Assembly (NCBI GenBank): GCA_027452245.1
Contig: DAIDGW010000217.1
Coordinates: 1-64,000, forward strand
Reading direction: 5' to 3'
DNA length: 64,000 bases
Source: Acidobacteriaceae bacterium
GTDB taxonomy: Bacteria > Acidobacteriota > Terriglobia > Terriglobales > Acidobacteriaceae
Part shown: positions 35,308 through 51,310 of the stretch, piece by piece
Numbering within the stretch: position 1 is the first letter of the stretch
Layout of the letters: each line of letters opens with the position of its first letter
Program-made: the position numbers and the translations under genes
Notes under the pieces: model-generated
What the model saw: the letters and a program-made list of their open reading frames with translations, nothing else
What the model was told of the DNA's origin: nothing
Databases searched by the model: none

Positions 35308-35404
<97 letters not shown>

Positions 35405-35410
35405 TCTTTC

Positions 35411-35426
35411 AATCCCAACCACTTAC
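35411..35426. repeat. Terminal inverted repeat, left
   Basis: AATCCCAACCACTTAC, exact reverse complement of 36944-36959. It is 7 bp inside the left attachment site, where integrase arm-type sites are often found. Role inferred from position. Confidence 0.65.
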
Positions 35427-35440
35427 GCCGCATATCGCGC

Positions 35441-36706
35441 CTACTGAATCGTCTGCAACATCGGCTGTTCTTGGTTCTCAACTGTCCTGTTAGTGTCCCG
35501 AACCGTTTGCGCCGCTTCGGGAATGTGGTTTTCAAGTTTCTCCATCGCCTGCTTCACATCGTCGGCAGCCGTCTTGATGTAGTACGTCGCCGTGGTGCTG
35601 ACGTTCGCATGACGAAGAATTCGCTGGATCACCATGTCCGGCACACCCAGCCTGTAGAGGTTGCTTCCGAGTCCCCGCCGTGCAGCGTGCCAGCCGTGCC
35701 ATTCTGGAATACGAGAGTCGCGGGAATAGGGATGGTCTGCTTTCTCGTGGTCTGATTCTGCCTTGCCGCAAACCTCGCAGCGATTCAGAGCACCGAGAAT
35801 CATACGGTTGACAATACTGCCGAGGGCGAGGGGATTGCCTGCCCCATTGGCAAAGATCGGCCCCTTTTTTGGATTTCCGTTGCGCAACCGATGCATGTCG
35901 AGACGGTCGGCAAGCTGCCGGATAACCGGAACAGGAGCACGACCTTTCCGAGTTTTCGGATCAGTCACAAGGCCATTCCAGATTGACCGCGAGACGAACA
36001 ATTCGCCGTTGGCATAGTTCTCCCAAAGCAAACCTTGAATCTCACCGTGCCGAAGGCCCATGAACGCTGCGACCGCAAAGGCCGTAGCAGCAGGCTCGGG
36101 AAGCAGAGAGAGAATGCTCTGGATTTCATCCAGACTGTACGCATACGTTTCCTGCGGTTCTGCGGCCTTAGGGTTAACAGAGGAATCACGGGCGGGGTTT
36201 TCCCCCTGGAAATAGTCTTGCTGCTTCGCCAGAGTAAAGATTCCACTGACGACGCTTTTTATGTGCTTTAGAGTATTCCTGCTGAGTTTTCCTGCCCCGA
36301 TCTGATCGAGCCACGCTTGAACGTGATACGTCCGAGTGTCCTTCAGCCAGACTTGCTGACAGATGGGCTTCAAATGATCTTCCCATATGTCCCGGTATCC
36401 CTTCTCAGTAGAAGGCCTCTTGTGGTTCTTAATCCAAGGCAAGTAAACGCGCTCGACGAAGTCGTTCACAGTGACGACTCGTTCGGCAGGGAGGGTTCCA
36501 CTATTCACAGTCGCCATGTGCCGCTCGGCTTCGGTGACCATGTCGGCGGGAGGACGTTTCCCGCGCGTGGTGACGTCTCCGAGGAAGTGAGTCACTCGCT
36601 TCCTTTCGATTAGTCCGCTGATATTCCGGAGTTCCCAATAGCGAACATACCAGCGATTTCCAATGCGAATGATCTGACCTTGCTGCTTTCTTTTTCGAGT
36701 GTTCAC
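35441..36706 (-). CDS. Tyrosine recombinase/integrase
   Basis: 421 residues. The N-terminal part (about 1-150) is the arm-binding and SAM-like core-binding region (YLPWIKNHKRPSTEKGY). The catalytic part holds the first Arg in MGLRHGEIQGLLW, the second-box HAARRG in place of the usual HDLRRT, and the C-terminal LRHANVSTTATYYI supplying the His and the nucleophilic Tyr. It resembles phage-type integrases of tRNA-targeting elements. The gene reads toward the tRNA, and its stop is 40 bp from it; the start side has 280 bp of non-coding DNA before the right att site. It probably catalysed this insertion; no excisionase is encoded. Confidence 0.9.
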   Translation of the reverse strand: MNTRKRKQQGQIIRIGNRWYVRYWELRNISGLIERKRVTHFLGDVTTRGKRPPADMVTEAERHMATVNSGTLPAERVVTVNDFVERVYLPWIKNHKRPSTEKGYRDIWEDHLKPICQQVWLKDTRTYHVQAWLDQIGAGKLSRNTLKHIKSVVSGIFTLAKQQDYFQGENPARDSSVNPKAAEPQETYAYSLDEIQSILSLLPEPAATAFAVAAFMGLRHGEIQGLLWENYANGELFVSRSIWNGLVTDPKTRKGRAPVPVIRQLADRLDMHRLRNGNPKKGPIFANGAGNPLALGSIVNRMILGALNRCEVCGKAESDHEKADHPYSRDSRIPEWHGWHAARRGLGSNLYRLGVPDMVIQRILRHANVSTTATYYIKTAADDVKQAMEKLENHIPEAAQTVRDTNRTVENQEQPMLQTIQ

Positions 36707-36943
36707 TTTTCTCCTTTCCGTTTACGTTCGCGGGCTGCAACGGCTAATTTCGCGATTCTGCTATAGGAAGGTTTGATGGCGAATTATCTTCCGGCTCCCA
36801 GCCACACGCACTCTTCGACCACGGAAGCCTGAGAAGAGGCGCCAGCAGGCTACTGCACGGAGCAGAAATGCGGTGTCCGCAGTAGTGTCCCGAAACTGCC
36901 GAACGAGGTCACGTCAGGTGATTTTTTCTGCTGTGGGGCGACT

Positions 36944-36959
36944 GTAAGTGGTTGGGATT
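36944..36959. repeat. Terminal inverted repeat, right
   Basis: GTAAGTGGTTGGGATT, exact reverse complement of the repeat at 35411-35426. It lies 26 bp inside the right attachment site. Confidence 0.65.
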
Positions 36960-36985
36960 GCGTGGGATCACTTCGAGAGCGAGAA

Positions 36986-37050
<65 letters not shown>

Positions 37051-37494: not shown

Positions 37495-38634
37495 ATGCCA
37501 TTCGAACGAACGTTCGATATCTGTGCCGGTCTTGATTTCCCCTCGGTACGCGAATGGAAGCAAGCCCATCCCGGAAACAAAGTCATAGCCTGCTTTCCCG
37601 TATATGCGCCGGTGGAGTTGATCCACGCCGCGGGCATGTTGCCTGTGGGACTCAGCGGTGCCGGTGACCGGCTCGACATTCAGCACGCGGATGCCCGTTT
37701 CGGATCTTTCATCTGTTCCATCGTTAAGACAACGCTGGAAATGGGGCTGGCTGGGCACCTCGATCCGTTTGATGGCTTTCTGTTCTCGACCATTTGTGAC
37801 TCAGCCAGAAACCTGTGCTTTGTCATGAAACGGAATTTTCCTCAGTTGTATGTAGACTTTCTGCATTTGCCGCACAACCCCAGTTCGCCGGCGGCAGCGC
37901 AATTTCTGGCTGAGGAGTATCGGCGCATACTTACCGAGCTTGAACGGTTGGGTGGCGAGGTCAACGATGAAGCACTGCGGCACTCGATTGGCCTTTACAA
38001 CCGCAATCGCGCTTTGATTCGCGAACTCTACCGGTTGCGTACGCGGGCGCCGCAGCAAGTCCCTACCTCGGAACTCTATCAACTTATTCGCTTGGGAAAT
38101 TTTCTGCCGGTCGAGGAACACACGGCGCTGCTGGAAATGGCTCTGGCAGATTTCCAGTCGCGCAGCGGTAAACCCAGGGACTCCATTCGGATCGTCGTTG
38201 AAGGATCCTTCTGTGAACAACCTCCGCTCACATTAATCCGCCTCGTCGAAGATGCGGGTTGTTACATCGTCGACGATGACTTCGTCATTGGCCAGAACTG
38301 GTTTGCAGGCGACGTTCCCACCGAAGGAGATCCCCTGCTATCGCTGGCGAGGAGCTATCTCGATCAGTCCGTATACTCCTCGGTCCGTCATGACTTCCGC
38401 AAGCCGCGATGGGACGGCCTGGTGGACAAGGTGCGGCGGAACCACGCGGACGCGGTCCTGTTCCTGATCGCCAAGTTTTGCGAGCCCGCTTATTTCGATT
38501 ACGTCCCCTACAAGCAGGAACTGGAACGCGCCGGCGTCCCCCATCTGCAACTGGAGTTTGAGGAGAAATCGTTCACTTTCGATCGCCTGCGCACAGAGAT
38601 TGAGACGTTCGTGGAGTCGCTTGTCTTTGATTGA
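37495..38634 (+). CDS. bcrC: Benzoyl-CoA reductase subunit C (BcrC/BadD/BzdN type)
   Basis: 379 residues of the 2-hydroxyacyl-CoA dehydratase/benzoyl-CoA reductase fold. Family segments: VIACFPVYAPVELIHAAGML near residue 30, FICSIVKTTLEMGL (Cys74), STICDSARNL (Cys101), VVEGSFCEQPPLTLIRLVE, CYIVDDDFVIGQ and KFCEPAYFDY (Cys near 329). These cysteines are the candidate cluster ligands. It is one half of the BC heterodimer that binds benzoyl-CoA and reduces the aromatic ring by one-electron steps. It is the first gene of the ten-gene operon. Benzoyl-CoA rather than hydroxyacyl-CoA specificity is argued from the downstream had-oah-dch genes. Confidence 0.9.
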   Translation: MPFERTFDICAGLDFPSVREWKQAHPGNKVIACFPVYAPVELIHAAGMLPVGLSGAGDRLDIQHADARFGSFICSIVKTTLEMGLAGHLDPFDGFLFSTICDSARNLCFVMKRNFPQLYVDFLHLPHNPSSPAAAQFLAEEYRRILTELERLGGEVNDEALRHSIGLYNRNRALIRELYRLRTRAPQQVPTSELYQLIRLGNFLPVEEHTALLEMALADFQSRSGKPRDSIRIVVEGSFCEQPPLTLIRLVEDAGCYIVDDDFVIGQNWFAGDVPTEGDPLLSLARSYLDQSVYSSVRHDFRKPRWDGLVDKVRRNHADAVLFLIAKFCEPAYFDYVPYKQELERAGVPHLQLEFEEKSFTFDRLRTEIETFVESLVFD

Positions 38635-38653
38635 GGAATTGGACGGGAAAACA

Positions 38654-39934
38654 ATGACCGACATGAAGGAGTATCGCGGCTCGATTCACCAACGGCAAAA
38701 GGACTTGATGCTCGCCTGGTATGAACAATTGGATCAGGCAGCCAGCACAGGCAGTCCAGCTTCGGTCTCCATGATGATCTCCGGGAACTGTGTCGAACTG
38801 CTGGAGGGGTTTGGGGCCGTCCCGCTCTATCCCGAAATAAACGCATTGCAGCTGGCAATTCGTCACCAATCGCTTGATCCGATACTGGCAGCGGAGGACC
38901 TTGGCTATGCAGCCGATAACTGCGCATATGTAAAAGCTGATATCGGCTGCATTCTGAAGGGAATCACGCCGACCGGCGGCAAGCTGCCCACCCCGACGCT
39001 CATCCTGTGTAACTTTGTCGGCTGCAACACCTATCTGAAGTGGTTCGAGCACCTGGCCAAGCTTCAGCAGGCTCCTCTGTATGTGATCGATGTTCCCTTC
39101 ATGCGAACCAACGAACCCTCGCGGTCAGATCTGGAATACGTCGTCAAGCAATTGCAGGAGACTGTGAGGAAGCTAGAGCAACTCACTGGGGCCAGGTTCG
39201 ATTACGACCGTTTTCGCGAGGCGGTCGCCTGCTCCAGCCGCACGGAAGAACTGTGGTCGCGAATCAAGCATCTGGCGCGCCGTTCGCCTTCGCCGTTCGA
39301 CGCATACTTCGACGCCATCACTCTCATGGGCCCGCTCTATGTTTACCGCGCCAGACCGGAAGGCGTGGAGTTTTTTGAGGCTGCCCTCGCCGAACTGCAG
39401 GCCAAAGCCGATGCGCACAAAGGAATTTACGAACAGGAAAACTTCCGGGTGGTGATGGAGGGCCCTCCGCCTTATCCATATTTCCGCACCTTCCGCGACA
39501 TGTTTGCCAAGTGGCAGGCATGCGCCGTTGCCTCCACCTACTCGACAGTAGGAGGACTGTGGGAATTCGGCTTTCGCCACGATCCCGACCATCCCTTCGA
39601 ATCGGTCGCCATGCACATGATTGCGCAGAATGTGACCAACCGGAACTTTCTGCAGCGCTACGACCAGATTCGCCAATATGTCGAGGAGTGGAACGCTGAC
39701 GGACTGATCATCCATTTTGTGAAGAGCTGCCGGTTATTTTCCGCCGGCCAGGGCGATATGCGCGACTACTTCACCAAACAACTCGGGATCCCGACCTTAT
39801 ATATCGAATCCGACCTGGAAGACCCCAGATATTTCGCAGAGGCCCAGACCAAGAATCGCATTGATGCTTTCTTTGAGACCTTGGAGCATTCGAAGACTGC
39901 TGCGATCCGGAGCGGAGCCCGGGAGGAGAAATGA
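38654..39934 (+). CDS. bcrB: Benzoyl-CoA reductase subunit B (BcrB/BadE/BzdO type)
   Basis: 426 residues from the ATG at 38654, close to the usual 435-440. Recognisable segments: MMISGNCVELLEGFGAVPLYPE near residue 40, CAYVKADIGC, LILCNFVGCNTYLKWFEHL, VVMEGPPPYPYFRTFRDMF and the strongly conserved IIHFVKSCRLFSAGQGDM near residue 360. Cysteines in these blocks are candidate cluster and substrate-site residues. It pairs with BcrC. A longer in-frame start at 38558 overlaps bcrC and has no family sequence. Its stop overlaps the next start (ATGA). Confidence 0.9.
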   Translation: MTDMKEYRGSIHQRQKDLMLAWYEQLDQAASTGSPASVSMMISGNCVELLEGFGAVPLYPEINALQLAIRHQSLDPILAAEDLGYAADNCAYVKADIGCILKGITPTGGKLPTPTLILCNFVGCNTYLKWFEHLAKLQQAPLYVIDVPFMRTNEPSRSDLEYVVKQLQETVRKLEQLTGARFDYDRFREAVACSSRTEELWSRIKHLARRSPSPFDAYFDAITLMGPLYVYRARPEGVEFFEAALAELQAKADAHKGIYEQENFRVVMEGPPPYPYFRTFRDMFAKWQACAVASTYSTVGGLWEFGFRHDPDHPFESVAMHMIAQNVTNRNFLQRYDQIRQYVEEWNADGLIIHFVKSCRLFSAGQGDMRDYFTKQLGIPTLYIESDLEDPRYFAEAQTKNRIDAFFETLEHSKTAAIRSGAREEK

Positions 39935-40770
39935 GAATCGCAGCAGGAGTCGACGTCGGTTCCACTCAGACAAAAGCAGTCGTCATGTCCGATAACGGGG
40001 GAGTGAAAGTGCTGGCGCGCGCCCTGGTGGATACAGGTGCCAACGTGCAGCGCGCGGCCGAACGGGCCTTCGATGCCTGTTGTCAGAAGGCTGGCGTTCA
40101 AAGTGGCGACGTAGGGTTCGTTGTGGGTACCGGCTACGGCCGATACAAAATCGCCTTCGGCAACACGCAGATGACCGAAATCACCTGTCACGCCAAAGGC
40201 GCCAGCTTTCTCTGCCCGGGCACGCGCACGGTCATTGATATGGGCGGTCAGGATTCAAAGGCGATCAGTGTCGGCGCCACCGGTGAGGTGCTGGATTTCG
40301 TGATGAATGATAAGTGCGCCGCCGGGACCGGACGGTTTCTGGCGAACTCGGCGGAGGTCATGGGTATCAGCCTCGATGAAGTAGGTCCGCTTTCCCTCAG
40401 GGCTCGGCATCCGGTCAAGATCGCGACCGTATGCACCGTATTCGTCGAGTCAGACATCCTTTCCTACCTCGCGCAGGGCAAGACGGGAGAAGACATCCTA
40501 GGCGGCGTTCACATTGCCATCGCGAAGCGGACTCTTTCATTGGCGCGGCGGCTGAACATTGAACCGGAAATTACGATGACGGGCGGCGTCGCCCGCAACG
40601 TGGGCATGGTCCGGGCGCTCGAGGAAGTCCTGGGACGCAAGATGTTGGTCAGCCCCGACGCCCAATTTGTCGGTGCGGTCGGCGCCGCGCTTTTCGCGCT
40701 GGAGAAACTTGATCAGAGTTTCGAATCTGGCATTTGGAGGGAAGGCCATGCCGTTCCTGGCGGGCATTGA
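39931..40770 (+). CDS. bcrD: Benzoyl-CoA reductase ATPase subunit D (BcrD/BadG/BzdQ type)
   Basis: 279 residues of the ASKHA-fold activator ATPase family. Motifs: GVDVGSTQTKAVV (phosphate 1), IDMGGQDSKAISV (phosphate 2), TGGVARNVGMV (adenosine). Cys129 (NDKCAAGTGRF) and Cys168 (TVCTVFVESDI) are the ligands for the 4Fe-4S cluster shared across the two ATPase subunits. It couples hydrolysis of two ATP to electron transfer into the BC unit. It overlaps bcrB by 4 bp and bcrA by 23 bp, so all four subunits are translationally linked. Confidence 0.88.
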   Translation: MRIAAGVDVGSTQTKAVVMSDNGGVKVLARALVDTGANVQRAAERAFDACCQKAGVQSGDVGFVVGTGYGRYKIAFGNTQMTEITCHAKGASFLCPGTRTVIDMGGQDSKAISVGATGEVLDFVMNDKCAAGTGRFLANSAEVMGISLDEVGPLSLRARHPVKIATVCTVFVESDILSYLAQGKTGEDILGGVHIAIAKRTLSLARRLNIEPEITMTGGVARNVGMVRALEEVLGRKMLVSPDAQFVGAVGAALFALEKLDQSFESGIWREGHAVPGGH

Positions 40771-41581
40771 TTGCGGAACCAGTTTTACCAAGGCGGTTGT
40801 GCTTTCTGCCGCTGAGGGCGAACCTCGGGTTCTGGGTAAGGGACGAACCCGGAGCGGCGTGAAGGTCGATGAAGCGGCGGGCGCCGCGCTGGAACAGGCC
40901 ATGGCGGAAGCAGGCATTGGCAGGCGCCAGTTAGATTACGTTGCCGCCACCGGATTCGGCCGCTATGGCTTAAGCTTCCGCGACATTCAAGTGACGGAAA
41001 TCACGACGGCTGCGCGGGGCGCGCACTTCGTCATCCCCGAGACCAGCGCCGTCCTTGATATTGGAGGTCAGTGCACCCGCGCCATCGGCGTTAGCGAGAC
41101 TGGCAAAGTCAAGGTCTTCAAAAGCAATGATAAGTGCGCCGCCGGCTCCGGCATGTTCATCCAACGCGCGGCCAAGTATCTCGAAGTGCCGCTTGAAGAT
41201 GTAGGTGAACTCTCCCTTCATGCCACCCACCCTCAGCCGATCTCCAGCGTCTGCGCGGTGCTCGCGGAAAGCGAAATCATCAACCACGTCAGTGCCGGAA
41301 TCACCGTGCAGGACATTTTGCGCGGCATTCACGAGTCGCTGGCTGACCGGGCCGGAGCGCTTCTCAAGCGCGTGGAGATGAAAGAACAGCTCACCTTAAT
41401 TGGTGGAGTCGCACGTCAGGCAGGGATTGCCAAGGCTTTGGAGGACCGATTGAAGGTCAAGGTCAACATTCCTCAGGATTGCGATTTCATCTGTGCCTTA
41501 GGTGCAGCCTTGCTGGGCCTGAAACGCCTGACGGGCAAACGATCGGCTGGGGAAACGATTGCGAGGGAGTATGCGAATTGA
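40748..41581 (+). CDS. bcrA: Benzoyl-CoA reductase ATPase subunit A (BcrA/BadF/BzdP type)
   Basis: 278 residues from an ATG with GGAGGGAAGG directly upstream. It is the second ASKHA ATPase: GIDCGTSFTKAVVL, LDIGGQCTRAIGV, IGGVARQAGI; cluster ligands Cys130 (NDKCAAGSGMF) and Cys169 (SVCAVLAESEI). The third motif has Cys109 where its partner has Asp. At 278 residues it is far shorter than Thauera-type BcrA (about 440), so with the short BcrD the pair resembles the Azoarcus (Bzd) type; the subtype is inferred from length. Together with BcrD it delivers low-potential electrons, normally taken from a ferredoxin, which is not encoded here. Confidence 0.85.
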   Translation: MPFLAGIDCGTSFTKAVVLSAAEGEPRVLGKGRTRSGVKVDEAAGAALEQAMAEAGIGRRQLDYVAATGFGRYGLSFRDIQVTEITTAARGAHFVIPETSAVLDIGGQCTRAIGVSETGKVKVFKSNDKCAAGSGMFIQRAAKYLEVPLEDVGELSLHATHPQPISSVCAVLAESEIINHVSAGITVQDILRGIHESLADRAGALLKRVEMKEQLTLIGGVARQAGIAKALEDRLKVKVNIPQDCDFICALGAALLGLKRLTGKRSAGETIAREYAN

Positions 41582-42662
41582 TGGCGCGCACGGCTATCGT
41601 TTGATCGCCGCAGGAAAACCACTGGAGCGATTCGAACTCGCCGCTCTGGAGCCCGCGCCAGATGAAGTTGTTGTGGAGGTTCTCGGCTGCGGCATTTGCC
41701 ACACCGACGTCGGGTTCGCGATTGACGGAGTTCCCACGAGAAAGCCGCTGCCGCTCGTGCTCGGCCATGAGATCAGCGGGCGCGTGATCGCCGCCGGAGA
41801 CCATGCGCAAGCATGGCTCGGCCGACTCGTTGTTGTCCCTGCAGTCGTTCCGTGCGGTAACTGTCCAGCCTGCCGGGCGAATCGCCCCACGATTTGTCGC
41901 AACCAATTCATGCCGGGCAACGACGGCGACGGAGGCTTCGCGACACACGTGCGGGTTCCGGCGCGCGGACTCTGTCCCGTACCCGAACCGCTCCCCCCGG
42001 GATTACATCCAGAATTGCTCTCGGTCGTTGCCGATGCTGTCACCACACCTTGGGAGGCCATCCGCCGTGCCTGCGTGGGACCGGAAGATGTCGCGGTCTT
42101 TGTGGGCGTCGGCGGTGTTGGTGGATTTGGAGTGCAGGTCGCAGCCGCGCTCGGGGCTGCAGTGATCGCCGTCGATATCGATCCCGGCAAGCTGGAGCTA
42201 GCCGCGCATCATGGAGCGGGCTTGGCCCTCAACTCCTCCACGATGAGTGAGAAGGACCTCAAGACCGCGGTGCGAAATTTCTCGAAGCAGAGCGGCCGCA
42301 GAAACATCGGTCTCAAAATCTTTGAGACCAGTGGAACCCCAGCCGGGCAACAAACTGCATTTGGACTGCTCGATTTTGGCGGCTACCTCGCCGTGGTCGG
42401 TTTTACGCCGAAGAAGGTGGAAATCCGCCTGTCGAACCTTATGGCGCTCGATGCCACGGCACGCGGCAACTGGGGTTGTCCTCCGGATCAATATCCAGAT
42501 GCTCTTCAACTGGTTTTACGTGGCAAGGTTGCCATCGACCCCTATGTCGAAGTGCACCCGCTCGATGAGGCCCCAGCAGTTTTCGACGCAGTCGCGAGAC
42601 ATTCCATAACCCGCCGCGCCATCCTCAAACATGTCGCCAACCCAGGCCAGGAGAAGCCATGA
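41571..42662 (+). CDS. had: 6-hydroxycyclohex-1-ene-1-carbonyl-CoA dehydrogenase
   Basis: 363 residues of the zinc alcohol dehydrogenase fold. Catalytic-zinc Cys is in GCGICHTDVG; the four structural-zinc cysteines are in PCGNCPACRANRPTIC; the Rossmann motif is VFVGVGGVGGFGVQ. It oxidises the 6-hydroxy group with NAD+ to the 6-oxo compound. The start is the ATG at 41571 behind GAGGGAG, overlapping the last 11 bp of bcrA. Assignment to this step rather than a general alcohol dehydrogenase rests on position between the reductase and the ring hydrolase and on the family-typical NGDGGFATHVRVPARGLCP-like middle. Confidence 0.88.
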   Translation: MRIDGAHGYRLIAAGKPLERFELAALEPAPDEVVVEVLGCGICHTDVGFAIDGVPTRKPLPLVLGHEISGRVIAAGDHAQAWLGRLVVVPAVVPCGNCPACRANRPTICRNQFMPGNDGDGGFATHVRVPARGLCPVPEPLPPGLHPELLSVVADAVTTPWEAIRRACVGPEDVAVFVGVGGVGGFGVQVAAALGAAVIAVDIDPGKLELAAHHGAGLALNSSTMSEKDLKTAVRNFSKQSGRRNIGLKIFETSGTPAGQQTAFGLLDFGGYLAVVGFTPKKVEIRLSNLMALDATARGNWGCPPDQYPDALQLVLRGKVAIDPYVEVHPLDEAPAVFDAVARHSITRRAILKHVANPGQEKP

Positions 42663-43756
42663 AAAACCACAATCTTGTTGAGTCTTCGCCGCGCACAACC
42701 ATTCTGGTGGACCACCGGCCGGCCAGGAATCGGGAGGGTTCCCCGGTCGCCGGGCTGCACAATGTGTGGATTACGCTGAACAATCCCGCCGAACTCAACA
42801 GCTACACGACTGAGATGGTCAAGGAGATCATTCTGGCATTGCATGAAGCATCCAACGATCGCGCAGCGGTGGCCGTTGTGCTGACCGGCGCGGGCAGTCG
42901 TTCGTTTTGCGCAGGAGGAAATACGCGGGAGTATGCCGAAGTATATGCGGGCGCACCTGGCGAATACCGCCAGTATATGCGGCTCTTCAATGACATGGTG
43001 ACGTCGGTCCTGCAATGCGACAAACCGGTGATCTGCAGAGTCAACGGCATGCGGGTTGGAGGCGGGCAGGAAGTCGGCATGGCCTGCGATTTTTCGATTG
43101 CAAGCGACGTGGCGGTATTCAGCCAGGCCGGTCCCAAACACGGTTCGGCTCCTGACGGCGGCTCGACGGATTTCCTGCCGCTCTATGTGGGCATCGAACG
43201 CGCGATGATGAGCGGTACGCTGTGCGAGCCCTGGAGCGCCCACCGCTTCTACTGGATGGGAGGGCTGACTCAGATCGTTCCTGTAACCAAAGTGGACGGC
43301 CGTTTCGTTCCCAATCCGCTCGTCGTGACCGACCGCGTTCTCGACGAATATGGTCGAATCATAATTGGCGAATTCAAAAGCGGCGAGGAGAAAAAACAGG
43401 CGCAGAGTGTGCTCGCAAACGCTCAGATCGACCTCAGTCTGCTGGACAGTGCCGTCGACGAGCTGTGTACGAAACTCCTATACACTATGCCCGATTGCCT
43501 GATCAAAACCATTGAAAGCCTGCGCAAACACAAACTCCAGCATTGGGATCGAAATCGTGAAAGCAATCGCGCATGGCTTTCGCTGAACATGATGACCGAG
43601 GCCAACGCTGGATTTCGTGCGTTTCATTATGGGGACAGGAAGAACCGCGAAGTTGATTTCGTGCGATTGCGGCAACAGCTCGCCCAGGGCGCACACTGGA
43701 GCGAGGAATTGATCGAAGACATTGCTCCCTGGGCCGTACAAGGAGTGGCGAAATGA
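42659..43756 (+). CDS. oah: 6-oxocyclohex-1-ene-1-carbonyl-CoA hydrolase (BamA/Oah)
   Basis: 365 residues of the crotonase superfamily, close to the 375-380 usual for ring-opening hydrolases. Family segments: WITLNNPAELNSYTTEMVKE, SFCAGGNTREYAEVYAG, the oxyanion-hole GMRVGGGQEVGMACDFSIAS and GPKHGSAPDGGSTDFLP. This enzyme adds two waters and opens the ring to 3-hydroxypimelyl-CoA, and is used as a marker of anaerobic aromatic degradation. It overlaps had and dch by ATGA. Confidence 0.93.
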   Translation: MKNHNLVESSPRTTILVDHRPARNREGSPVAGLHNVWITLNNPAELNSYTTEMVKEIILALHEASNDRAAVAVVLTGAGSRSFCAGGNTREYAEVYAGAPGEYRQYMRLFNDMVTSVLQCDKPVICRVNGMRVGGGQEVGMACDFSIASDVAVFSQAGPKHGSAPDGGSTDFLPLYVGIERAMMSGTLCEPWSAHRFYWMGGLTQIVPVTKVDGRFVPNPLVVTDRVLDEYGRIIIGEFKSGEEKKQAQSVLANAQIDLSLLDSAVDELCTKLLYTMPDCLIKTIESLRKHKLQHWDRNRESNRAWLSLNMMTEANAGFRAFHYGDRKNREVDFVRLRQQLAQGAHWSEELIEDIAPWAVQGVAK

Positions 43757-44532
43757 GCTTTAACAAGGTCCGGCTCGAGTTTACGCACCAGGAGCGCGTG
43801 GCACGCATCATACTGGCCTCTCCGAAGGCCAATATATTGGATCGGGTTATGCTCGGCGAACTCCGAGAAGCCGTGTCAGAGGCTACGGCGCATCCACGGA
43901 ACGCGATCATCATCGGTGCCGATGGCCCGCACTTCAGTTTCGGAGCCAGCGTGCAGGAACATCTGCCCGACCAGATTTCCCGTACCCTGCAGGCTCTGCA
44001 CAGTCTGCTGCGGCAGATCCATGAAGCTCCCGCACCCGTGATTGCGGCGGTTCGAGGGCAGTGCTTAGGGGGAGGGTTTGAACTCGCGCTGGCCTGCGAC
44101 ATGATCATTGCCGACAGGACTTCCCAATTTGCCGTACCGGAAATCAAGCTGGCGGTGTTTGCTCCCGCTGCTTCTGCTTTGTTGCCGCTGCGGGCGGGAC
44201 AGGCCTTAGCTGTGCGGTTGTTGCTGACCGGAGCGGCAATCAGCGCTGATGAGGCTGCCACAAATGGACTTGTCGCCAGGGTAGCCGAGGATCTCGATGG
44301 AGAGATCGATCGCTGGCTGGAATCGGATTTTCTACCGCGCTCGCCCTCTTCATTGCAGTTTGCGTGCCGGGCGGCTCGCATGTGCTTGCGCCGCGCATTC
44401 GAGGAAGACCTTAGGAAATTGGAACATCTGTACTCGTTGGAACTGATGGCGACACCCGATGCGGAAGAAGGCATTCGCGCTTTCCTGGAGAAACGGGCTC
44501 CGCAGTGGGGCAAAACCGCAGTTGTGACCTAA
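43753..44532 (+). CDS. dch: Cyclohexa-1,5-diene-1-carbonyl-CoA hydratase
   Basis: 259 residues of the enoyl-CoA hydratase fold: ARIILASPKANILDRVMLGEL at the start, the oxyanion-hole segment GADGPHFSFGASVQEHLPD, RGQCLGGGFELALACDMI, and a helical C-terminus. It adds water to the dienoyl-CoA made by the reductase to give the 6-hydroxy compound used by Had. The call uses both sequence and position; by sequence alone it could be another crotonase. Confidence 0.87.
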   Translation: MSFNKVRLEFTHQERVARIILASPKANILDRVMLGELREAVSEATAHPRNAIIIGADGPHFSFGASVQEHLPDQISRTLQALHSLLRQIHEAPAPVIAAVRGQCLGGGFELALACDMIIADRTSQFAVPEIKLAVFAPAASALLPLRAGQALAVRLLLTGAAISADEAATNGLVARVAEDLDGEIDRWLESDFLPRSPSSLQFACRAARMCLRRAFEEDLRKLEHLYSLELMATPDAEEGIRAFLEKRAPQWGKTAVVT

Positions 44533-44541
44533 AGGATGAGA

Positions 44542-45270
44542 ATGAGCCAAGCTTCTGCCATTGACGGGAAAATCGCCGTGGTGACCGGAGGCTCGGGGGC
44601 GATTGGGCAAGCGATTGCCTGCGCGCTCCACACCGCGGGTTCTACCGTCTCGCTACTGGATGTGGTTCCACCGAAACATTCAACCTTGCCATGGATCGAA
44701 TGTGACGTGCGGGACGATTCATCTGTCGCCCACGCGATCCGCACAGTAACCAAGAAGTACGGAGGTGTGGACCTCGCGATACACGCTGCCGGAGTTTCGC
44801 GCGATGCTGTCGTTTGGAAGCTCTCCGTCGACGATTGGGACTTCGTCCAGAGTGTCAATCTTCGCGGCGCATTCTTACTGATTCGACATGCGCTGCCGCT
44901 GATGCGGGAGCGTTCAGGCGGACGAATCGTTCTCATCGGTTCCATCAACGGTTCCAGAGGTAAATTCGGCACCTCGGCATATTCCGCCAGCAAAGCGGGT
45001 CTGCTGGGGCTGGCCAAAACCGTCGCACGGGAAGCAGGACGCTTCGGAGTCCTGATCAACGTGATTGAGCCCGGATGGGTGCGAACCCCGCTAACCGAAG
45101 CCGTCCCGCAGACGATCCGCGATTCGGCACTGGCAGAAAGTCTGGTTGGCACCTTTGTGGAACCCGACGATATCGGTCAGGCAGTCGGATTCCTTTGTGG
45201 CCCGGGCGGAGGGCACATTACCGGCCAGGTCTTGCGGGTAGATGGAGGACAATTCCTGGGACCGACCTAG
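44542..45270 (+). CDS. SDR-family dehydrogenase, candidate 3-hydroxypimelyl-CoA dehydrogenase
   Basis: 242 residues, FabG-like: TGGSGAIGQAIA cofactor motif near residue 16, HAAGVS, catalytic Ser in IGSINGSRGK, Tyr and Lys in YSASKAG, then VIEPGWVRTPL and LRVDGGQFL. The start at ATG 44542 has AAGGA 8 nt upstream; a second ATG 6 bp earlier is too close to it. The pathway needs an NAD-dependent 3-hydroxypimelyl-CoA dehydrogenase right after the ring hydrolase, and no other candidate is in the operon, so this is the likely role; a paralogous 3-oxoacyl-ACP reductase is possible. Confidence 0.8.
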   Translation: MSQASAIDGKIAVVTGGSGAIGQAIACALHTAGSTVSLLDVVPPKHSTLPWIECDVRDDSSVAHAIRTVTKKYGGVDLAIHAAGVSRDAVVWKLSVDDWDFVQSVNLRGAFLLIRHALPLMRERSGGRIVLIGSINGSRGKFGTSAYSASKAGLLGLAKTVAREAGRFGVLINVIEPGWVRTPLTEAVPQTIRDSALAESLVGTFVEPDDIGQAVGFLCGPGGGHITGQVLRVDGGQFLGPT

Positions 45271-45288
45271 TTTTCTTCGGAGGTACTC

Positions 45289-46020
45289 ATGACAAATTCC
45301 CATTCTCTTCGCTGCTCAAGATGCGGACGCATCGCTGCTGAACAGGACAAGTTTTGCGCCGAGTGCGGCCTGTTCCTGCGGGATGGTGCGATAGATCAGC
45401 GGCTCTTGTTAGCCCTCGCTTACCAACGTGATGGCCGCAGCCAGGATGCCCGCCATGAACTCGAACGCCTGCTCAGCCTTGAGCCCAACCACGTATTGGC
45501 CAACCATCTGCTGGGGAACCTGCACTTTCATGAAGGCTTGCTGGACCAGGCGGCCGAGAATTACCAGAAAGCGGTTGCGGCCGCGCCCTCCTTTTTGCTC
45601 GGACACTACGATCTTGGGGTCGCCTATTATCACCGCGGCGAGATGCCGCGAGCCGCACAGGCTTTTCGCCTTTGCCTTGAAATCGACCCAAACTACAATG
45701 CGGCGCACTACCGCCTCGGCCTGGCCCTGTTTCACAGCGGCCAACTTGATGAGGCTCGCGAGCACTTTGAATTATCACTCTCGCTCACGCCCGAATATCT
45801 GATGGCACATTACCATCTCGGCATCATTCATGAGAGGCAGGGCGAATACGAAGCAGCAGCGCGCGAGTTCGAGCGCAGCCTGGAGGAATCCACCGGTGAC
45901 GTCAGCAGCCTGTATCACCTCGCGCTGGTTCGCGACGCACAGGGCGACCACACCGCGGCAGACGATTTGCGCCGTCGGGCTCGCGGATTTGCCAAATCAC
46001 AACCCGTAGGAACGAAATAA
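45289..46020 (+). CDS. Zinc-ribbon TPR-repeat protein in the benzoyl-CoA operon
   Basis: 243 residues. A zinc ribbon (CSRCG...CAECG, residues 6-25) is followed by TPR units from about 37 to 235 (for example LANHLLGNLHFHEGLLDQAAEN, LGHYDLGVAYYHRGEMPRAA, AHYRLGLALFHSGQLDEA, AHYHLGIIHERQGEYEAA). The start has GGAGG about 8 nt upstream. It has no catalytic motif and would serve as a protein-binding scaffold. It is not a known part of benzoyl-CoA pathways, so its role in assembly, regulation or electron supply is unknown. Confidence 0.82.
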   Translation: MTNSHSLRCSRCGRIAAEQDKFCAECGLFLRDGAIDQRLLLALAYQRDGRSQDARHELERLLSLEPNHVLANHLLGNLHFHEGLLDQAAENYQKAVAAAPSFLLGHYDLGVAYYHRGEMPRAAQAFRLCLEIDPNYNAAHYRLGLALFHSGQLDEAREHFELSLSLTPEYLMAHYHLGIIHERQGEYEAAAREFERSLEESTGDVSSLYHLALVRDAQGDHTAADDLRRRARGFAKSQPVGTK

Positions 46021-46035
46021 GCGCCCGAGGTGGCC

Positions 46036-47286
46036 ATGAACCCGCTGGAGGAGAAAAACCTCATCTATGACTGGGCAGCGCAGGGCCCGCGCCGCGCCCA
46101 GTGGCCCAGTCGCGTTATGATTGACGACGAAACCCTGCGCGACGGCCTGCAAAGCCCCTCGGTGACGGACCCCCCGGTCGAAACCAAACTGCAAATTCTT
46201 CACCTCATGGAGAGTCTGGGAATTGAAACGGCGGATGTCGGTTTGCCCGGCGCCGGAGCGCGGCAACAGGAGGCAGTCCTGTTGCTTTGCCGCGAGATCG
46301 CAAAGTACCGCATGCGTATCCAGGCCAATTGCGCCGCTCGCACGCTGATGGTTGATATCCGCCCCATTGCGGAAGCCACGCAACTCAGCGGCGTTCCCAT
46401 CGAAGCCTGCCTCTTCATTGGTTCCAGCCCGATTCGCCAGTATGCCGAGGAGTGGGAACTCGACGATATCCTGCGCCATTCCGGGGAGGCCATCACTTTT
46501 GCTGTGCGCGAAGGCCTGGACGTCATGTATGTCACCGAAGACACCGTTCGCTCCTCTCCGGAGCATCTGCGTGTCTTGCTCACCGCTGCAGTCGAGTGCG
46601 GCGCAAAGCGCCTTTGCCTGTGTGACACCTGTGGCGCAGCAACTCCTGATGCGGTCTACAACCTCGTCGACTGGGTCAAAATTTTGTTGCGCGACATAGG
46701 TTCTCCGCATGTCGGCATCGACTGGCACGGGCACCGCGATCGCGGCTTCGATCTGGCGAACACGATGGCTGCCATTGAAGCTGGCGCCAGCCGAGTGCAC
46801 GGCACCGCTCTCGGAATCGGAGAACGTGTGGGGAACACCCCGATTGAACAGATTCTCGTCAACCTAAAACTGCTCGGCATCCGAAACGACGACCTGACCC
46901 GTTTGCCAGATTACGTTCGCTTGGTCTCGCAGGTCACGCGGGTTACGATTCCGGTCAACACCCCGATCGTAGGCCAGGATGCTTTCCGGACAGCCACTGG
47001 GGTGCACGCCGCCGCCGTGATCAAAGCCCAAAAAAAGGGCCATACTTGGCTGGCAGACCGGATTTATTCAGGTGTCCCTGCAGGATGGATTGGCCGTTCG
47101 CAGAAAATTGAGATTGGTCCGATGTCAGGGAACTCCAATGTGCAATATTACCTTTCTTCTCACGGCATACCAGTGACCCCGGAGCTGACCAAGAGAATTA
47201 TCGAGGAAGCCAAGAAGTCTCCCCGCGTCCTGACCGATGCTGAAGTCCTGGACATTGTTCGTAGCTTCGCTTCATTGGCGACTTAA
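46036..47286 (+). CDS. DRE-TIM metallolyase (isopropylmalate/homocitrate synthase-like)
   Basis: 416 residues with the LeuA-family barrel: DDETLRDGLQSP near residue 30 (metal and substrate loop), CDTCGAATPD, the metal-binding HGH in IDWHGHRDRG, GLGIGERVGNTP-like TALGIGERVGNTP, and GVHAAAV. It would join an acyl-CoA to a 2-oxo acid or cleave the reverse. The C-terminal leucine-feedback domain of LeuA is not apparent, so it is not a simple leucine enzyme. It is the last gene of the operon. Possible roles are Re-type citrate synthesis from the acetyl-CoA produced, or an unknown side branch. It starts at ATG 46036 with GAGG upstream. Confidence 0.8.
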   Translation: MNPLEEKNLIYDWAAQGPRRAQWPSRVMIDDETLRDGLQSPSVTDPPVETKLQILHLMESLGIETADVGLPGAGARQQEAVLLLCREIAKYRMRIQANCAARTLMVDIRPIAEATQLSGVPIEACLFIGSSPIRQYAEEWELDDILRHSGEAITFAVREGLDVMYVTEDTVRSSPEHLRVLLTAAVECGAKRLCLCDTCGAATPDAVYNLVDWVKILLRDIGSPHVGIDWHGHRDRGFDLANTMAAIEAGASRVHGTALGIGERVGNTPIEQILVNLKLLGIRNDDLTRLPDYVRLVSQVTRVTIPVNTPIVGQDAFRTATGVHAAAVIKAQKKGHTWLADRIYSGVPAGWIGRSQKIEIGPMSGNSNVQYYLSSHGIPVTPELTKRIIEEAKKSPRVLTDAEVLDIVRSFASLAT

Positions 47287-48520: not shown

Positions 48521-51169
48521 ATGGCCCTCACCTCTGGCACGAAGCTCGGCCCCTATGAGATTCAATCGCCGCTCGGAGCAGGCGGAATGGGGGAGGTGTA
48601 CCGCGCGCGGGACACAAGACTGGATCGATCCGTCGCCATCAAAGTGCTGCCGCAACAATTTGCGCGCGATGCGGCGATGAAGCAGCGCTTTGATCGCGAA
48701 GCGAGGACCATCTCCACGTTGAACCATCCCAACATCTGCCATCTCTACGACGTAGGCAGCCAGAATGGCGTTGATTTTCTGGTGATGGAGTTGCTAGAAG
48801 GCGAGTCGCTGGCCGACCGGTTGAGCAAAGGCCCTCTGCCCCTGGAAAAGGCGCTGAAAACAGCTGGAGAGATCGCCGAGGCGCTCGACCGAGCCCACCG
48901 CGCGGGCATCGTGCATCGGGACCTGAAGCCCGGCAACATCATGCTCACCAAGACCGGGGCCAAATTGCTCGACTTCGGTCTTGCCAAACCCGCGGCGACC
49001 GGAACGATGTTAGACAGTCAGGCCGTCACGGAAGCGACGCAAACATCCCCGCTGACGGCGCGGGGCTCGCTGGTGGGAACGTTCCAGTACATGTCGCCGG
49101 AGCAAATCGAGGGAAGAGAAGCCGACGTGCGTAGCGACATCTTCTCCTTCGGCGCGGTCCTCTATGAGATGGTGACCGGCCAGCGCGCCTTCGGCGGAAG
49201 CACGCCGGCGAGCGTTATAGCCGCCGTCCTCAACTCGAAGCCGAAGCCAATCCTGGAGATACAGCCGCTGACGCCTGCGGCACTCGATCGCCTGGTCGGG
49301 ACTTGTCTGGAAAAGGAGCCCGAACTGCGCTGGCAGACTGCTTACGATATCAAACTCCACCTGGGCGCGATCCACGAGCTGGGCGGTCCGGCGATTTTGT
49401 CTTCATCCCAAAGGCGCAGCCTCAGCAGGAGGGCAGTGGTTGCCGTCGCAGCTGTGCTGGTTATCGCAAGCACAATCGTGTGGTGGCTTCCCCGGTCTGG
49501 GGTGCCCGGAACTCAGGTGCACTCCTCAATATTGCCGCCCGAGGGACAACAGTTCGATCCCAACGATTTTGCCATCTCGCCTGACGGGAGCATGATCGCC
49601 TATACCACATTAGGTCAGCAAGGTGGATTGTGGCTGCGGCGGCTCGCTACTGGCAAAGATGAACAGTTGCCAGGAACCGAGCCAGCTTCCTTCCCGTTCT
49701 GGTCTCCGGATAGCCGCTCAATCGGTTTCTTCAGCAATTCCATGCTGAGGAGAGTCGATGTGGCAGGCGGCCCGGCGGTCACACTGGCCGAGGTACATGG
49801 GGAGCGCGGCGCCACCTGGGGCGCTGACGGGACGATTCTGTTTGCTGGTGACTATGGGAAGTCGGGCCTTCGCCGTGTGAGCGCACAGGGAGGACCGGTG
49901 ACCGCCGTCACGCACGTCGATTCGGCGCGCGGCGAAGACAGTCATCGCTTGCCGTCTCTACTGCCGGATGGCCGCCACGTTCTTTTTTTCATGAGCAGCG
50001 CCCGGACACCGTTTGGCAGCAATCCGAATGACAACATTGCGGGGATTTACCTGCTGGACCTGAAGACCGGCAGGACCGAGTATCTGACCCGCTCCGACTC
50101 GGGAGCACAATATGCGAACGGTTACCTGTTTTACACGCTGCAGCAGAACCTGGTGGCACAGGAGATAGGCCGGGGTGATCGAATCGTCGGCGCTCCCCAC
50201 CCGATCGCAGAACAGGTACAGTACGACGCCAATGAGTGGCACGCCGGCTTCAGTGTCAGCGATCGGCTGATCGCCTGGGCAACTGCGCCGAGCATGACCA
50301 GTCGGCTCGCCTGGTACAACCGCGACGGGAAAGAAATCGGAACGGTCAATGTGAAAGGGTCCCCGTATGTGGTATCGCTGTCCCCGGACGGCACGAAGGT
50401 CGCCACTAGCGTGGGCCAACTTGGCGGCGACGCGGACGTGTGGGTCTATGACCTGGTTCATGGCGGAGAAACCCGTTTGACTTTTGGCAACAACTTCGGC
50501 TTCTCTCCCATATGGACTCCGGACGGGCAGGCGGTCACCTACATTTCGGCGGAGCGCGATGCCGGAGGCGACGAGATTGTCAGCAAGCCCAGCACGGGTT
50601 TGGGAACGGAAGCCGTGGTGGTAGCGCATGCCTCCCGGGTGGTGCCTAACGCTTGGTCGCCCGATGGACGGCACCTGCTGTACATGAACTTCGACGGGGG
50701 GAAGGGCCCGCGTCTCTGGGTACACGACATGGGGTCGAATCCGAGCGACCATCCGCTCCTGCAGACTGATTCGAGCGCAGGGGAGGCCCGATTCTCCCCG
50801 GATGGCAAATGGATCGCTTACAGTTCCGGTTATGAGGTGTACGTTGTGCCTTATCCCAGCTTGTCGACTCGCTATGCCATCTCGAGCGGCAAAGCTGCCC
50901 AACCGGTTTGGGCAAGAGATGGCAGGCAGCTTTATTTCATAGCCGCAGACGGCACGTTAATGTCCGCCAGCCTCACGGAAAGGGCTGACGGTCTGCAGGT
51001 CGGCCAGCCGCGGGCGCTGTTTCAGACGAATATCATTCAGGTGGTCGAAGCCTACACACAGTTCGATGTGTCTCCGGACGGCAGCCGCTTCTTGATCAAC
51101 ACCCGCATCGAACACGATCGCCAGCCGATCAGCATTATCGAGAACTGGATCTCAGGACTGAAAAAATAA
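48521..51169 (+). CDS. Serine/threonine protein kinase with TolB-like propeller, paralogue 1
   Basis: 882 residues. An N-terminal kinase domain (1-280): glycine loop GAGGMGEVY, ATP Lys41 (VAIKVL), catalytic loop HRDLKPGN (Asp134), DFGLAK, and activation-segment GTFQYMSPEQ. A single transmembrane helix at about 305-325 (AVVAVAAVLVIASTIVWWLP) follows. The external part holds repeats of SPDG and WSPDGR type (PFWSPDSRSIGFF, SPDGTKVATS, FSPDGKWIAYS), the TolB/WD40-like propeller. It probably senses an extracellular cue; the target is unknown. It belongs to a family expanded in soil Acidobacteriota. Confidence 0.9.
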   Translation: MALTSGTKLGPYEIQSPLGAGGMGEVYRARDTRLDRSVAIKVLPQQFARDAAMKQRFDREARTISTLNHPNICHLYDVGSQNGVDFLVMELLEGESLADRLSKGPLPLEKALKTAGEIAEALDRAHRAGIVHRDLKPGNIMLTKTGAKLLDFGLAKPAATGTMLDSQAVTEATQTSPLTARGSLVGTFQYMSPEQIEGREADVRSDIFSFGAVLYEMVTGQRAFGGSTPASVIAAVLNSKPKPILEIQPLTPAALDRLVGTCLEKEPELRWQTAYDIKLHLGAIHELGGPAILSSSQRRSLSRRAVVAVAAVLVIASTIVWWLPRSGVPGTQVHSSILPPEGQQFDPNDFAISPDGSMIAYTTLGQQGGLWLRRLATGKDEQLPGTEPASFPFWSPDSRSIGFFSNSMLRRVDVAGGPAVTLAEVHGERGATWGADGTILFAGDYGKSGLRRVSAQGGPVTAVTHVDSARGEDSHRLPSLLPDGRHVLFFMSSARTPFGSNPNDNIAGIYLLDLKTGRTEYLTRSDSGAQYANGYLFYTLQQNLVAQEIGRGDRIVGAPHPIAEQVQYDANEWHAGFSVSDRLIAWATAPSMTSRLAWYNRDGKEIGTVNVKGSPYVVSLSPDGTKVATSVGQLGGDADVWVYDLVHGGETRLTFGNNFGFSPIWTPDGQAVTYISAERDAGGDEIVSKPSTGLGTEAVVVAHASRVVPNAWSPDGRHLLYMNFDGGKGPRLWVHDMGSNPSDHPLLQTDSSAGEARFSPDGKWIAYSSGYEVYVVPYPSLSTRYAISSGKAAQPVWARDGRQLYFIAADGTLMSASLTERADGLQVGQPRALFQTNIIQVVEAYTQFDVSPDGSRFLINTRIEHDRQPISIIENWISGLKK

Positions 51170-51293
51170 GCGTCATCTTTTTAACGACGAAAGCTTTGCG
51201 CCGGTTTAAGTGAGCAGGACACGGTGGAAGGACTGTCTCTGGTTTGCCGACTATCGAACCAGGGGCGGATCGGCTACCGAGTGCGGCGTCGGC

Positions 51294-51299
51294 TATAAT
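51294..51299 (+). promoter_or_regulatory. Consensus -10 box of kinase gene 2
   Basis: Perfect TATAAT with 11 nt before the ATG at 51311, the same arrangement as for the first kinase, again with no Shine-Dalgarno sequence. Confidence 0.6.
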
Positions 51300-51310
51300 T
51301 GGCCGCACCC

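What the first reader, a model, noticed from the sequence alone, without database searches (positions are those of the whole stretch)
37495..47286. Complete anaerobic benzoyl-CoA reduction and ring-cleavage operon in an acidobacterial genome
Ten genes in one direction, most overlapping by 4-23 bp, encode all four class I benzoyl-CoA reductase subunits, then the dienoyl-CoA hydratase, the 6-hydroxy dehydrogenase, the ring hydrolase and a dehydrogenase fit for 3-hydroxypimelyl-CoA. Class I reductases are established in Thauera, Azoarcus and Rhodopseudomonas, and the ring hydrolase is a known marker gene. I know of no well-described benzoyl-CoA operon in Terriglobia-type Acidobacteriota, so if the phylum call holds this extends ATP-driven dearomatisation to soil Acidobacteriota. 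Functional steps are family knowledge; the phylum call and novelty are inference.
Basis: partly seen in the sequence, partly recalled or inferred. Interest (0 to 1): 0.85.

Follow-up and report, generated by a model that had tools for sequence, protein, structure and literature searches.

The report
Divergent benzoyl-CoA reductase operon in Acidobacteriota
A soil-type acidobacterium carries a tight ten-gene cluster that looks able to break open benzene rings without oxygen, using ATP and a ring-reducing enzyme from a branch of its family that I could not match to a named type.

Summary
Ten same-strand genes at 37495-47286 encode a four-subunit class I aryl-CoA reductase (C-B-A-D), Had, the ring hydrolase Oah/BamA, a Dch-like crotonase, an SDR, a zinc-ribbon/TPR protein and an HMGL/IPMS-like enzyme. 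Nearest named relatives are Candidatus Sulfotelmatobacter and Terriglobia MAGs; two hold all ten genes, a third nine.

The 'established type' reading needs correction. Each reductase subunit falls in a clade apart from Bcr/Bad and Mbd (all four trees) and from Bzd (B and C trees), and misses the curated bcr and bzd cut-offs. Its oah is nested among acidobacterial oah genes whose operons hold Bcr-type reductases, so the reductase was exchanged while the ring-opening genes stayed. In the window's family, 12 of 21 sampled oah genomes carry this type and 9 a Bcr-like B.

A side result may matter more: relatives with this reductase but no oah often carry an amidohydrolase and a BadH-like SDR. In 396 sampled genomes of the phylum its ortholog occurs in 13, all with a reductase B gene, none with oah: a candidate alternative ring hydrolase.

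Function is inferred throughout; nothing biochemical was tested.

The parts
37495..38634 (+). reductase subunit C (gamma; MbdN/BcrC-like), 379 aa
   Evidence: TIGR02263 342 bits (cut-off 421), PF06050; best PDB hit MbdN 9g87_B 300 bits; five Cys (74, 101, 240, 256, 329) shared by all Bcr, Mbd and window-type rows aligned
38654..39934 (+). reductase subunit B (beta, catalytic; MbdO/BcrB-like), 426 aa from ATG (longest ORF starts at TTG 38558)
   Evidence: TIGR02260 318 bits (cut-off 487); Cys90, 124, 359 aligned to BzdO Cys95, 128, 380
39931..40770 (+). reductase ATPase subunit A (alpha; MbdQ-like, short form), 279 aa
   Evidence: PF01869, TIGR00241; best PDB hit MbdQ 9gai_D 317 bits
40748..41581 (+). 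reductase ATPase subunit D (delta), 277 aa from ATG
   Evidence: PF01869; TIGR02261 179 bits (cut-off 313); in the tree with D/MbdP rows, although its best PDB chain is MbdQ (221 bits) before MbdP (187)
41571..42662 (+). Had, 6-hydroxycyclohex-1-ene-1-carbonyl-CoA dehydrogenase
   Evidence: TIGR03201 432 bits, above cut-off 339
42659..43756 (+). Oah/BamA, 6-oxocyclohex-1-ene-1-carbonyl-CoA hydratase/ring hydrolase
   Evidence: TIGR03200 549 bits, above cut-off 464; tree
43753..44532 (+). Dch-like crotonase (cyclohexa-1,5-dienecarbonyl-CoA hydratase-like)
   Evidence: best family TIGR03189 238 bits, below cut-off 292.5
44536..45270 (+). SDR dehydrogenase, FabG-like; proposed 3-hydroxyacyl-CoA dehydrogenase (inferred)
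   Evidence: PF13561; best NCBIfam model FabG 202 bits, cut-off 296
45289..46020 (+). zinc-ribbon + TPR protein, unknown role
   Evidence: TPR repeats, weak PF13248; homolog next to an hmgl homolog in L043, L044, L045, L064, L075, L076, L089, L116; not seen in L039 or L078
46036..47286 (+). HMGL/isopropylmalate-synthase-like enzyme, unknown role
   Evidence: PF00682 136 bits; closest PDB homocitrate synthase 6ktq 123 bits; second copy, 55% identical, in own genome
35308..35401 (+). tRNA-Ser(GCT) upstream of the operon (context)
   Evidence: ARAGORN
35340..37050 (.). small element with an integrase-family gene (35441-36706, minus) between exact 65-bp repeats of the tRNA-Ser end (35340-35404, 36986-37050); the operon lies just outside it (context)
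   Evidence: (PF00589 41 bits)

Best explanation
An operon for oxygen-independent dearomatisation and ring opening of benzoyl-CoA (or a close aryl-CoA) in a Ca. Sulfotelmatobacter-like acidobacterium. Inferred mechanism: the A/D ATPase pair lifts ferredoxin electrons with ATP; B, with a three-Cys [4Fe-4S] cluster and a nearby Glu, reduces the ring to a dienoyl-CoA, with C as the electron-holding partner; the Dch-like protein hydrates it, Had oxidises the 6-hydroxy product, Oah hydrates and opens the ring to 3-hydroxypimelyl-CoA, and the SDR starts beta-oxidation. Shown: gene content, Had and Oah passing their family cut-offs, conserved cluster cysteines, the separate clade of the reductase, and that the oah belongs to a branch whose other members are linked to Bcr-type reductases. 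Inferred: every reaction, the substrate, and the roles of the TPR and HMGL-like proteins.
For: Families and operon. Own clade in each subunit: B, 17 rows 100/99; C, 15 rows 95/87; A, 11 rows 100/100, and D, 12 rows 99/94. A falls with A and D with D subunits of Bcr and Mbd rows, so the ATPase is heterodimeric as in BCRs; the HAD activators HadI and HgdC fall outside both (89/77). Cys90/124/359, Tyr92 and Tyr296 of B align with BzdO Cys95/128/380, Tyr97 and Tyr298 (roles from PMC11971306 sections 8 and 9). All ten genes in the same order in L075 and L089, all but dch in L076. Oah in a 15-row acidobacterial clade (100/100); the nine rows outside the window type come from operons with Bcr-type reductases; holding the corresponding B proteins together is rejected (p-AU 3e-97). 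In the family 12 of 21 sampled oah genomes have a B at 78% identity or more to the window's (one a fragment at 90%) and 9 one at 39-41%.
Against: No subunit reaches a bcr or bzd cut-off and the hydratase misses its own. In the B tree the Mbd rows join the HadB-like rows (98/94), with a long-branch warning, so the B tree alone does not separate BCRs from HAD-type enzymes cleanly. BzdO Gln274, a third contact of the thioester oxygen, is Pro271 here (as in the Bcr rows). No benzoate-CoA ligase over cut-off, best 232 of 375 bits. 10 of 12 phylum-sample genomes with a B at least 50% identical lack oah, so this reductase is not tied to this pathway. Terminal electron acceptor unknown; DsrA far below cut-off. 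Genome bin in 274 contigs, no expression data. The AU test group was chosen after seeing the trees.
Confidence: 0.8

Rival explanations
1. The reductase acts mainly on a different aryl-CoA, for example a methyl- or hydroxybenzoyl-CoA, and the operon serves that substrate.
For: Best solved relatives of all four subunits are chains of the 3-methylbenzoyl-CoA reductase MbdNOQP. The residue at BzdO His131, next to the catalytic cluster, is Tyr127 in the 14 window-type rows aligned and in three acidobacterial Mbd-like rows, but Phe in the six Bcr rows.
Against: In trees it is not inside the Mbd clade, and MbdO itself has Phe at that position. Operon-mates Had and Oah pass the cut-offs of the unsubstituted-ring enzymes, and sister operons run the same kind of Had/Oah with a Bcr-type reductase.
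Confidence: 0.2
2. The C-B-A-D genes are a 2-hydroxyacyl-CoA dehydratase and its activator, not an aromatic reductase.
For: HGD-D and BcrAD domains are shared by both kinds; HadB, HadC and the activator are the second-best PDB hits of B, C and A; the B tree joins Mbd and HadB-like rows.
Against: Two distinct ATPase genes that separate with A and D of BCRs; HadC outside the Bcr/Mbd/window group; HadB not in the window clade; Had, Oah and Dch-like partners.
Confidence: 0.03
3. The operon runs in the reductive or fermentative direction, or as an electron sink, rather than for growth on aromatics.
For: PMC11971306 reports the reverse reaction, dienoyl-CoA to benzoyl-CoA, for BzdNO (passages); no ligase at cut-off.
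Against: Class I enzymes are described as catabolic in facultative anaerobes (PMC11971306 discussion).
Confidence: 0.08

Closest known systems
3-methylbenzoyl-CoA reductase MbdNOQP (PDB 9g87, 9gai)
   Same: Four subunits; short A subunit (269 aa against 279 here); its chains are the best PDB matches of all four subunits, though D matches MbdQ better than MbdP
   Different: Separate clade in B, C and D trees; in the A tree the Mbd rows are the neighbours with weak support (81/45)
Bcr/Bad-type class I reductase (Rhodopseudomonas pseudopalustris L118; Thauera recalled)
   Same: Pathway partners had-oah-dch in many such loci; shared B stretch GFRHDP
   Different: A subunit about 430-447 aa against 279 aa; B 37-42% identical; order had-oah-(dch)-C-B-A-D against C-B-A-D-had-oah-dch
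BzdNO of Aromatoleum (PDB 8s02)
   Same: Three cluster cysteines of the catalytic subunit, Tyr97 and Tyr298 equivalents
   Different: 140 and 107 bits only; BzdN outside the Bcr/Mbd/window group of the C tree; no BzdP/Q rows were at hand for the A/D tree
Oah/BamA ring hydrolase
   Same: TIGR03200 above cut-off
   Different: Nothing notable; ordinary member of an acidobacterial branch

Membership tests
Class I benzoyl-CoA reductase (BCR branch of the BCR/HAD family) | two HGD-D subunits plus two different BcrAD-type ATPase subunits in one operon | tested here: met
Class I benzoyl-CoA reductase (BCR branch of the BCR/HAD family) | three Cys of the catalytic [4Fe-4S] cluster in subunit B | tested here: met
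   Cys90, 124, 359; HadB has them too, so this alone does not separate BCR from HAD
Class I benzoyl-CoA reductase (BCR branch of the BCR/HAD family) | groups with BCRs and not with 2-hydroxyacyl-CoA dehydratases | tested here: met
   A/D and C; in the B tree the window clade is apart from HadB, but Mbd is not, with a long-branch warning
Class I benzoyl-CoA reductase (BCR branch of the BCR/HAD family) | ATP-dependent reduction of benzoyl-CoA to the 1,5-dienoyl-CoA | not testable with these tools
   needs an enzyme assay
Bcr/Bad type | passes the bcr equivalog cut-offs (TIGR02263, 02260, 02259, 02261) | tested here: not met
   342, 318, 183 and 179 bits, all below cut-off
Bcr/Bad type | inside the Bcr/Bad clade | tested here: not met
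Mbd type | inside the MbdNOQP clade | tested here: not met
   best PDB hits nevertheless
Bzd type | passes TIGR03190, 03191, 03192 cut-offs | tested here: not met
   133, 114, 185 bits against 454, 449, 380
Had (TIGR03201) | equivalog cut-off | tested here: met
Oah/BamA (TIGR03200) | equivalog cut-off | tested here: met
Dch (TIGR03189) | equivalog cut-off | tested here: not met
   238 of 292.5 bits, yet the best of 73 families; called Dch-like only

The most novel reading that the evidence does not exclude
Two linked claims. (a) This is a further, so far unnamed lineage of ATP-driven aryl-CoA reductase, centred on Acidobacteriota with an outlier in WOR-3 (and a lone B gene in a Rokubacteria bin), that has replaced the Bcr-type enzyme beside the same Had/Oah module. 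(b) Where this lineage, and some Mbd-like and Bcr-like reductases, occur without Oah, a highly conserved amidohydrolase-fold protein takes Oah's place, making it a second, unrelated way to open the dearomatised ring.
Probability: 0.45. Interest if true: 0.8.

Novelty: new variant of a known kind. Interest (0 to 1): 0.62.

Why it matters
It puts ATP-driven dearomatisation in a phylum common in soil and peat (general knowledge), shows by a natural swap that the reductase and the ring-opening module are exchangeable, and supplies a new enzyme branch for work on biological Birch reduction. Surveys that rely on bcr equivalog cut-offs could miss it, and surveys keyed to bamA/oah could miss its amidohydrolase-linked relatives. 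The oah/amidohydrolase exclusivity makes an open question directly testable: what opens the ring where Oah is absent, a question also raised for ThnN in naphthalene degradation (PMC12016498, passages).

Tried and rejected
2-hydroxyacyl-CoA dehydratase reading: rejected on the A/D split and the C tree. Mbd membership: suggested by the best PDB hits, not borne out by the trees. Genomic island reading: the 65-bp tRNA-Ser repeat encloses only the integrase (1.6 kb) and its 45-base core has no third copy in the 138-kb contig, so the operon is not shown to lie in an island; in L039 the operon also lies beside tRNA-Ser(GCT), but the tRNA end is not repeated in the 19-kb locus and no homolog of the window's integrase was found there at E 1e-30. 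HMGL-like gene as a pathway-specific enzyme: weakened, because relatives at E 1e-60 occur in 144 of 396 genomes and the window genome has a second copy; still, they are in 27 of the 39 oah genomes against 117 of the other 357 (hand count from the lists). Sulfate respiration: DsrA far below cut-off. Benzoate-CoA ligase: none over cut-off. The 2-oxoacid:ferredoxin oxidoreductase in the genome is weak support, since the same model also passes its cut-off in 6 of 14 control genomes. Structure models of the amidohydrolase and the HMGL-like protein were of modest quality (mean pLDDT 64 and 67) and no fold search was run.

Literature: searched an open-access library by keyword. PMC11971306: outline with abstract, passages, sections 8, 9 and 12. 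PMC12329716, PMC10803450, PMC10936416, PMC9418001, PMC12016498, PMC3794298 and PMC1924859: passages only. All other papers: search listings only. Of the 15 and 17 papers listed for Acidobacteria with benzoyl-CoA terms I opened passages of two. Nothing I saw describes a benzoyl-CoA reductase operon in Acidobacteriota or this reductase clade; most subscription papers are not held, so absence from print is not shown.

Limits: trees used hand-picked rows (B 58 of 115, C 42 of 103, A/D 65 of 194, oah 50 of 85); the A/D tree holds no Bzd rows. Outside the trees, reductase types are assigned by score or identity to the window's proteins. The scan that named relatives returned the best 79 of at least 575 loci, so its taxonomic range is a lower bound. 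The AU group was named after the trees were seen. Genome counts ignore shared ancestry, so the Fisher p values are optimistic. Thresholds (oah E 1e-80, amidohydrolase 71% identity with the next hit at 46%, B about 220 bits) were set or kept after seeing the score lists.
Full report
Observation. The ten ORFs are real, collinear and tightly packed. Had and Oah pass their curated cut-offs; the four reductase subunits and the hydratase match their families but miss theirs. The last two genes are a zinc-ribbon/TPR protein and an HMGL/IPMS-like enzyme.

Organism. The window is the first 64 kb of a 138-kb contig (C217) in a 6.23-Mb, 274-contig genome, 97.6% complete, with no 16S match. Reductase B is 92, 89 and 87% identical to L089, L075 and L077, all titled Candidatus Sulfotelmatobacter, and 86% to L076, a Terriglobia MAG. 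The window's threonyl-tRNA synthetase is 87-89% identical to that of these four genomes and 47-50% to those of L106, L118 and L146, the proteobacterial genomes tested. The acidobacterial call rests on these named relatives; no genome-wide tree was built.

Reductase type. Among solved structures the best chain for each subunit belongs to the 3-methylbenzoyl-CoA reductase Mbd; subunit D matches MbdQ (221 bits) better than its expected counterpart MbdP (187). In trees the window belongs to a separate group: B 17 rows 100/99, C 15 rows 95/87, A 11 rows 100/100 (12 with WOR-3, 92/56) and D 12 rows 99/94. Bcr/Bad and Mbd rows lie outside it in all four, Bzd rows in B and C (none in A/D), HAD rows in all. 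Against a clean picture: in the B tree the Mbd rows join the HadB-like rows (98/94), with long-branch warnings for HadB, BzdO and MbdO; in the C tree the window group is next to Mbd (87/94). L090 and L091 (Ignavibacteria, Bacteroidetes) form a further small lineage, nearer to Bcr in B. Named members of the window group are acidobacterial MAGs, bins HR08 and HR10, a WOR-3 MAG, and a Rokubacteria bin in which only B was seen. The three catalytic cysteines and the tyrosines at BzdO Tyr97 and Tyr298 are kept; BzdO Gln274 is Pro271 here; the BzdO His131 position is Tyr in the window type and Phe in the Bcr rows (PMC11971306 sections 8, 9 and 12 read). BzdO Glu65 is matched to window Glu61 by position only, because the printed BzdO stretch starts after it.

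Exchange of the reductase. One search places the window's oah in a 15-row acidobacterial clade (100/100) that holds rows of the window's family and of two more distant families. Six rows (window, L089, L075, L076, L039, L078) come from operons with the window-type reductase in the order C-B-A-D-had-oah. Nine (L044, L045, L058, L062, L063, L064, L037, L038, L116) come from operons in the order had-oah-(dch)-C-B-A-D with Bcr-type reductases, five of these placed by the B tree and four by score; L058 is cut before A and D. Holding the corresponding B proteins together costs 544 log units (p-AU 3e-97). In the family, B is found in 28 of 190 genomes: 18 at 76% identity or more (one a 124-residue fragment at 90%) and 10 at 39-41%. 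Oah is in 21 of 190, 12 with the first kind of B and 9 with the second. One congener, G516, has the second kind while the window genome has the first; the five other congeners sampled have neither. The reductase and ring-opening modules thus move separately, which argues that both reductases feed the same intermediates. The last three genes are not universal: sdr, tpr and hmgl were not seen next to the operon in L039 or L078.

Relatives without Oah. In the phylum sample 12 of 396 genomes hold a B at least 50% identical to the window's. Two have oah, seven the amidohydrolase (PF04909) ortholog and three neither; two of the three (G039, G011, 50%) were not placed in a tree. Of 25 loci with a B match of 500 bits or more, 6 have oah nearby, 9 the amidohydrolase, none both and 10 neither; five of the ten are cut by a contig end within or beside the cluster (L077, L080, L081, L083, L085), and some loci are near-identical, so they are not 25 independent cases. 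The amidohydrolase mostly sits with a BadH-like SDR (best model TIGR03206, 263 and 302 of 431 bits in L159 and L084) before C-B-A-D; in L161 both follow D, and in L165 it stands with had-like and dch-like genes. Over the phylum sample the ortholog occurs in 13 genomes, all with a B gene of 220 bits or more (46 of the other 383 have one) and none with oah; in 12 of the 13 it lies within 3 kb of that B gene, and in G376 it is on a contig edge. Within the 59 B-positive genomes the counts are 0 both, 13 amidohydrolase only, 31 oah only and 15 neither (Fisher p 9e-6, no correction for kinship). Its reductase neighbours are window-type, Mbd-like (L173-L176) and Bcr-like (L177, L178), the last two typed by score. 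All fifteen copies aligned keep His in HIYG, VGH and (A/S)HTGWPW, but the usual N-terminal metal motif HxH (recalled) is absent (IDxMYY), so its chemistry may be unusual. Precedents are ThnN, the remaining candidate for opening the first ring of naphthalene, and BamU of the Geobacter metallireducens benzoate gene set, function unknown (PMC12016498, passages; PMC1924859, passage). I could not compare sequences with either, and Geobacter also lists an Oah2.

Gaps. No benzoate-CoA ligase over cut-off and no DsrA; a 2-oxoacid:ferredoxin oxidoreductase is present. Thiolase and glutaryl-CoA steps were not searched in the genome. The HMGL-like gene is a copy of a gene common in the phylum (144 of 396 genomes), so a special role here is unproven, although an HMGL-like gene also heads the L090 and L091 clusters.

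Verdict. The finding is real, better than described in one respect (a distinct reductase branch, exchangeable with Bcr) and weaker in another (oah operons are not rare in this phylum). New variant of a known kind.

Noticed in passing
L159:6284-7192, L084:7116-8012, L079:7115-8026, L082, L160-L163, L165, L173-L178: Conserved amidohydrolase beside class I reductases of three types; ortholog in 13 of 396 genomes, none of them with oah: candidate alternative ring hydrolase lacking the usual HxH motif.
   Followed up: partly
window 35308-37050: tRNA-Ser(GCT) with an exact 65-bp repeat of its 3' part at 36986-37050 enclosing only a phage-integrase-family gene (35441-36706, minus): a minimal or decayed integrative element about 450 bp before the operon.
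   Followed up: partly
L039:7217-7310: The homologous operon in another genus of the family also lies beside tRNA-Ser(GCT), in opposite orientation.
   Followed up: partly
L090 and L091: Ignavibacteria/Bacteroidetes clusters hmgl-oah-sdr-dch-C-B-A-A-had with a further divergent reductase lineage.
   Followed up: no
L159:12123-13223: Rieske ring-hydroxylating oxygenase alpha subunit directly after a C-B-A-D reductase cluster, an odd mix of oxygen-dependent and oxygen-free chemistry.
   Followed up: no
window 48521-54061: Two adjacent Ser/Thr kinase genes with sub-cut-off TolB-like C-terminal matches downstream of the operon.
   Followed up: no
G000 contig C124, about 33.9-54.8 kb: A 2-oxoacid:ferredoxin oxidoreductase, the genome's best (sub-cut-off) benzoate-CoA-ligase match and another BcrAD-family protein lie within 21 kb of each other.
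   Followed up: no
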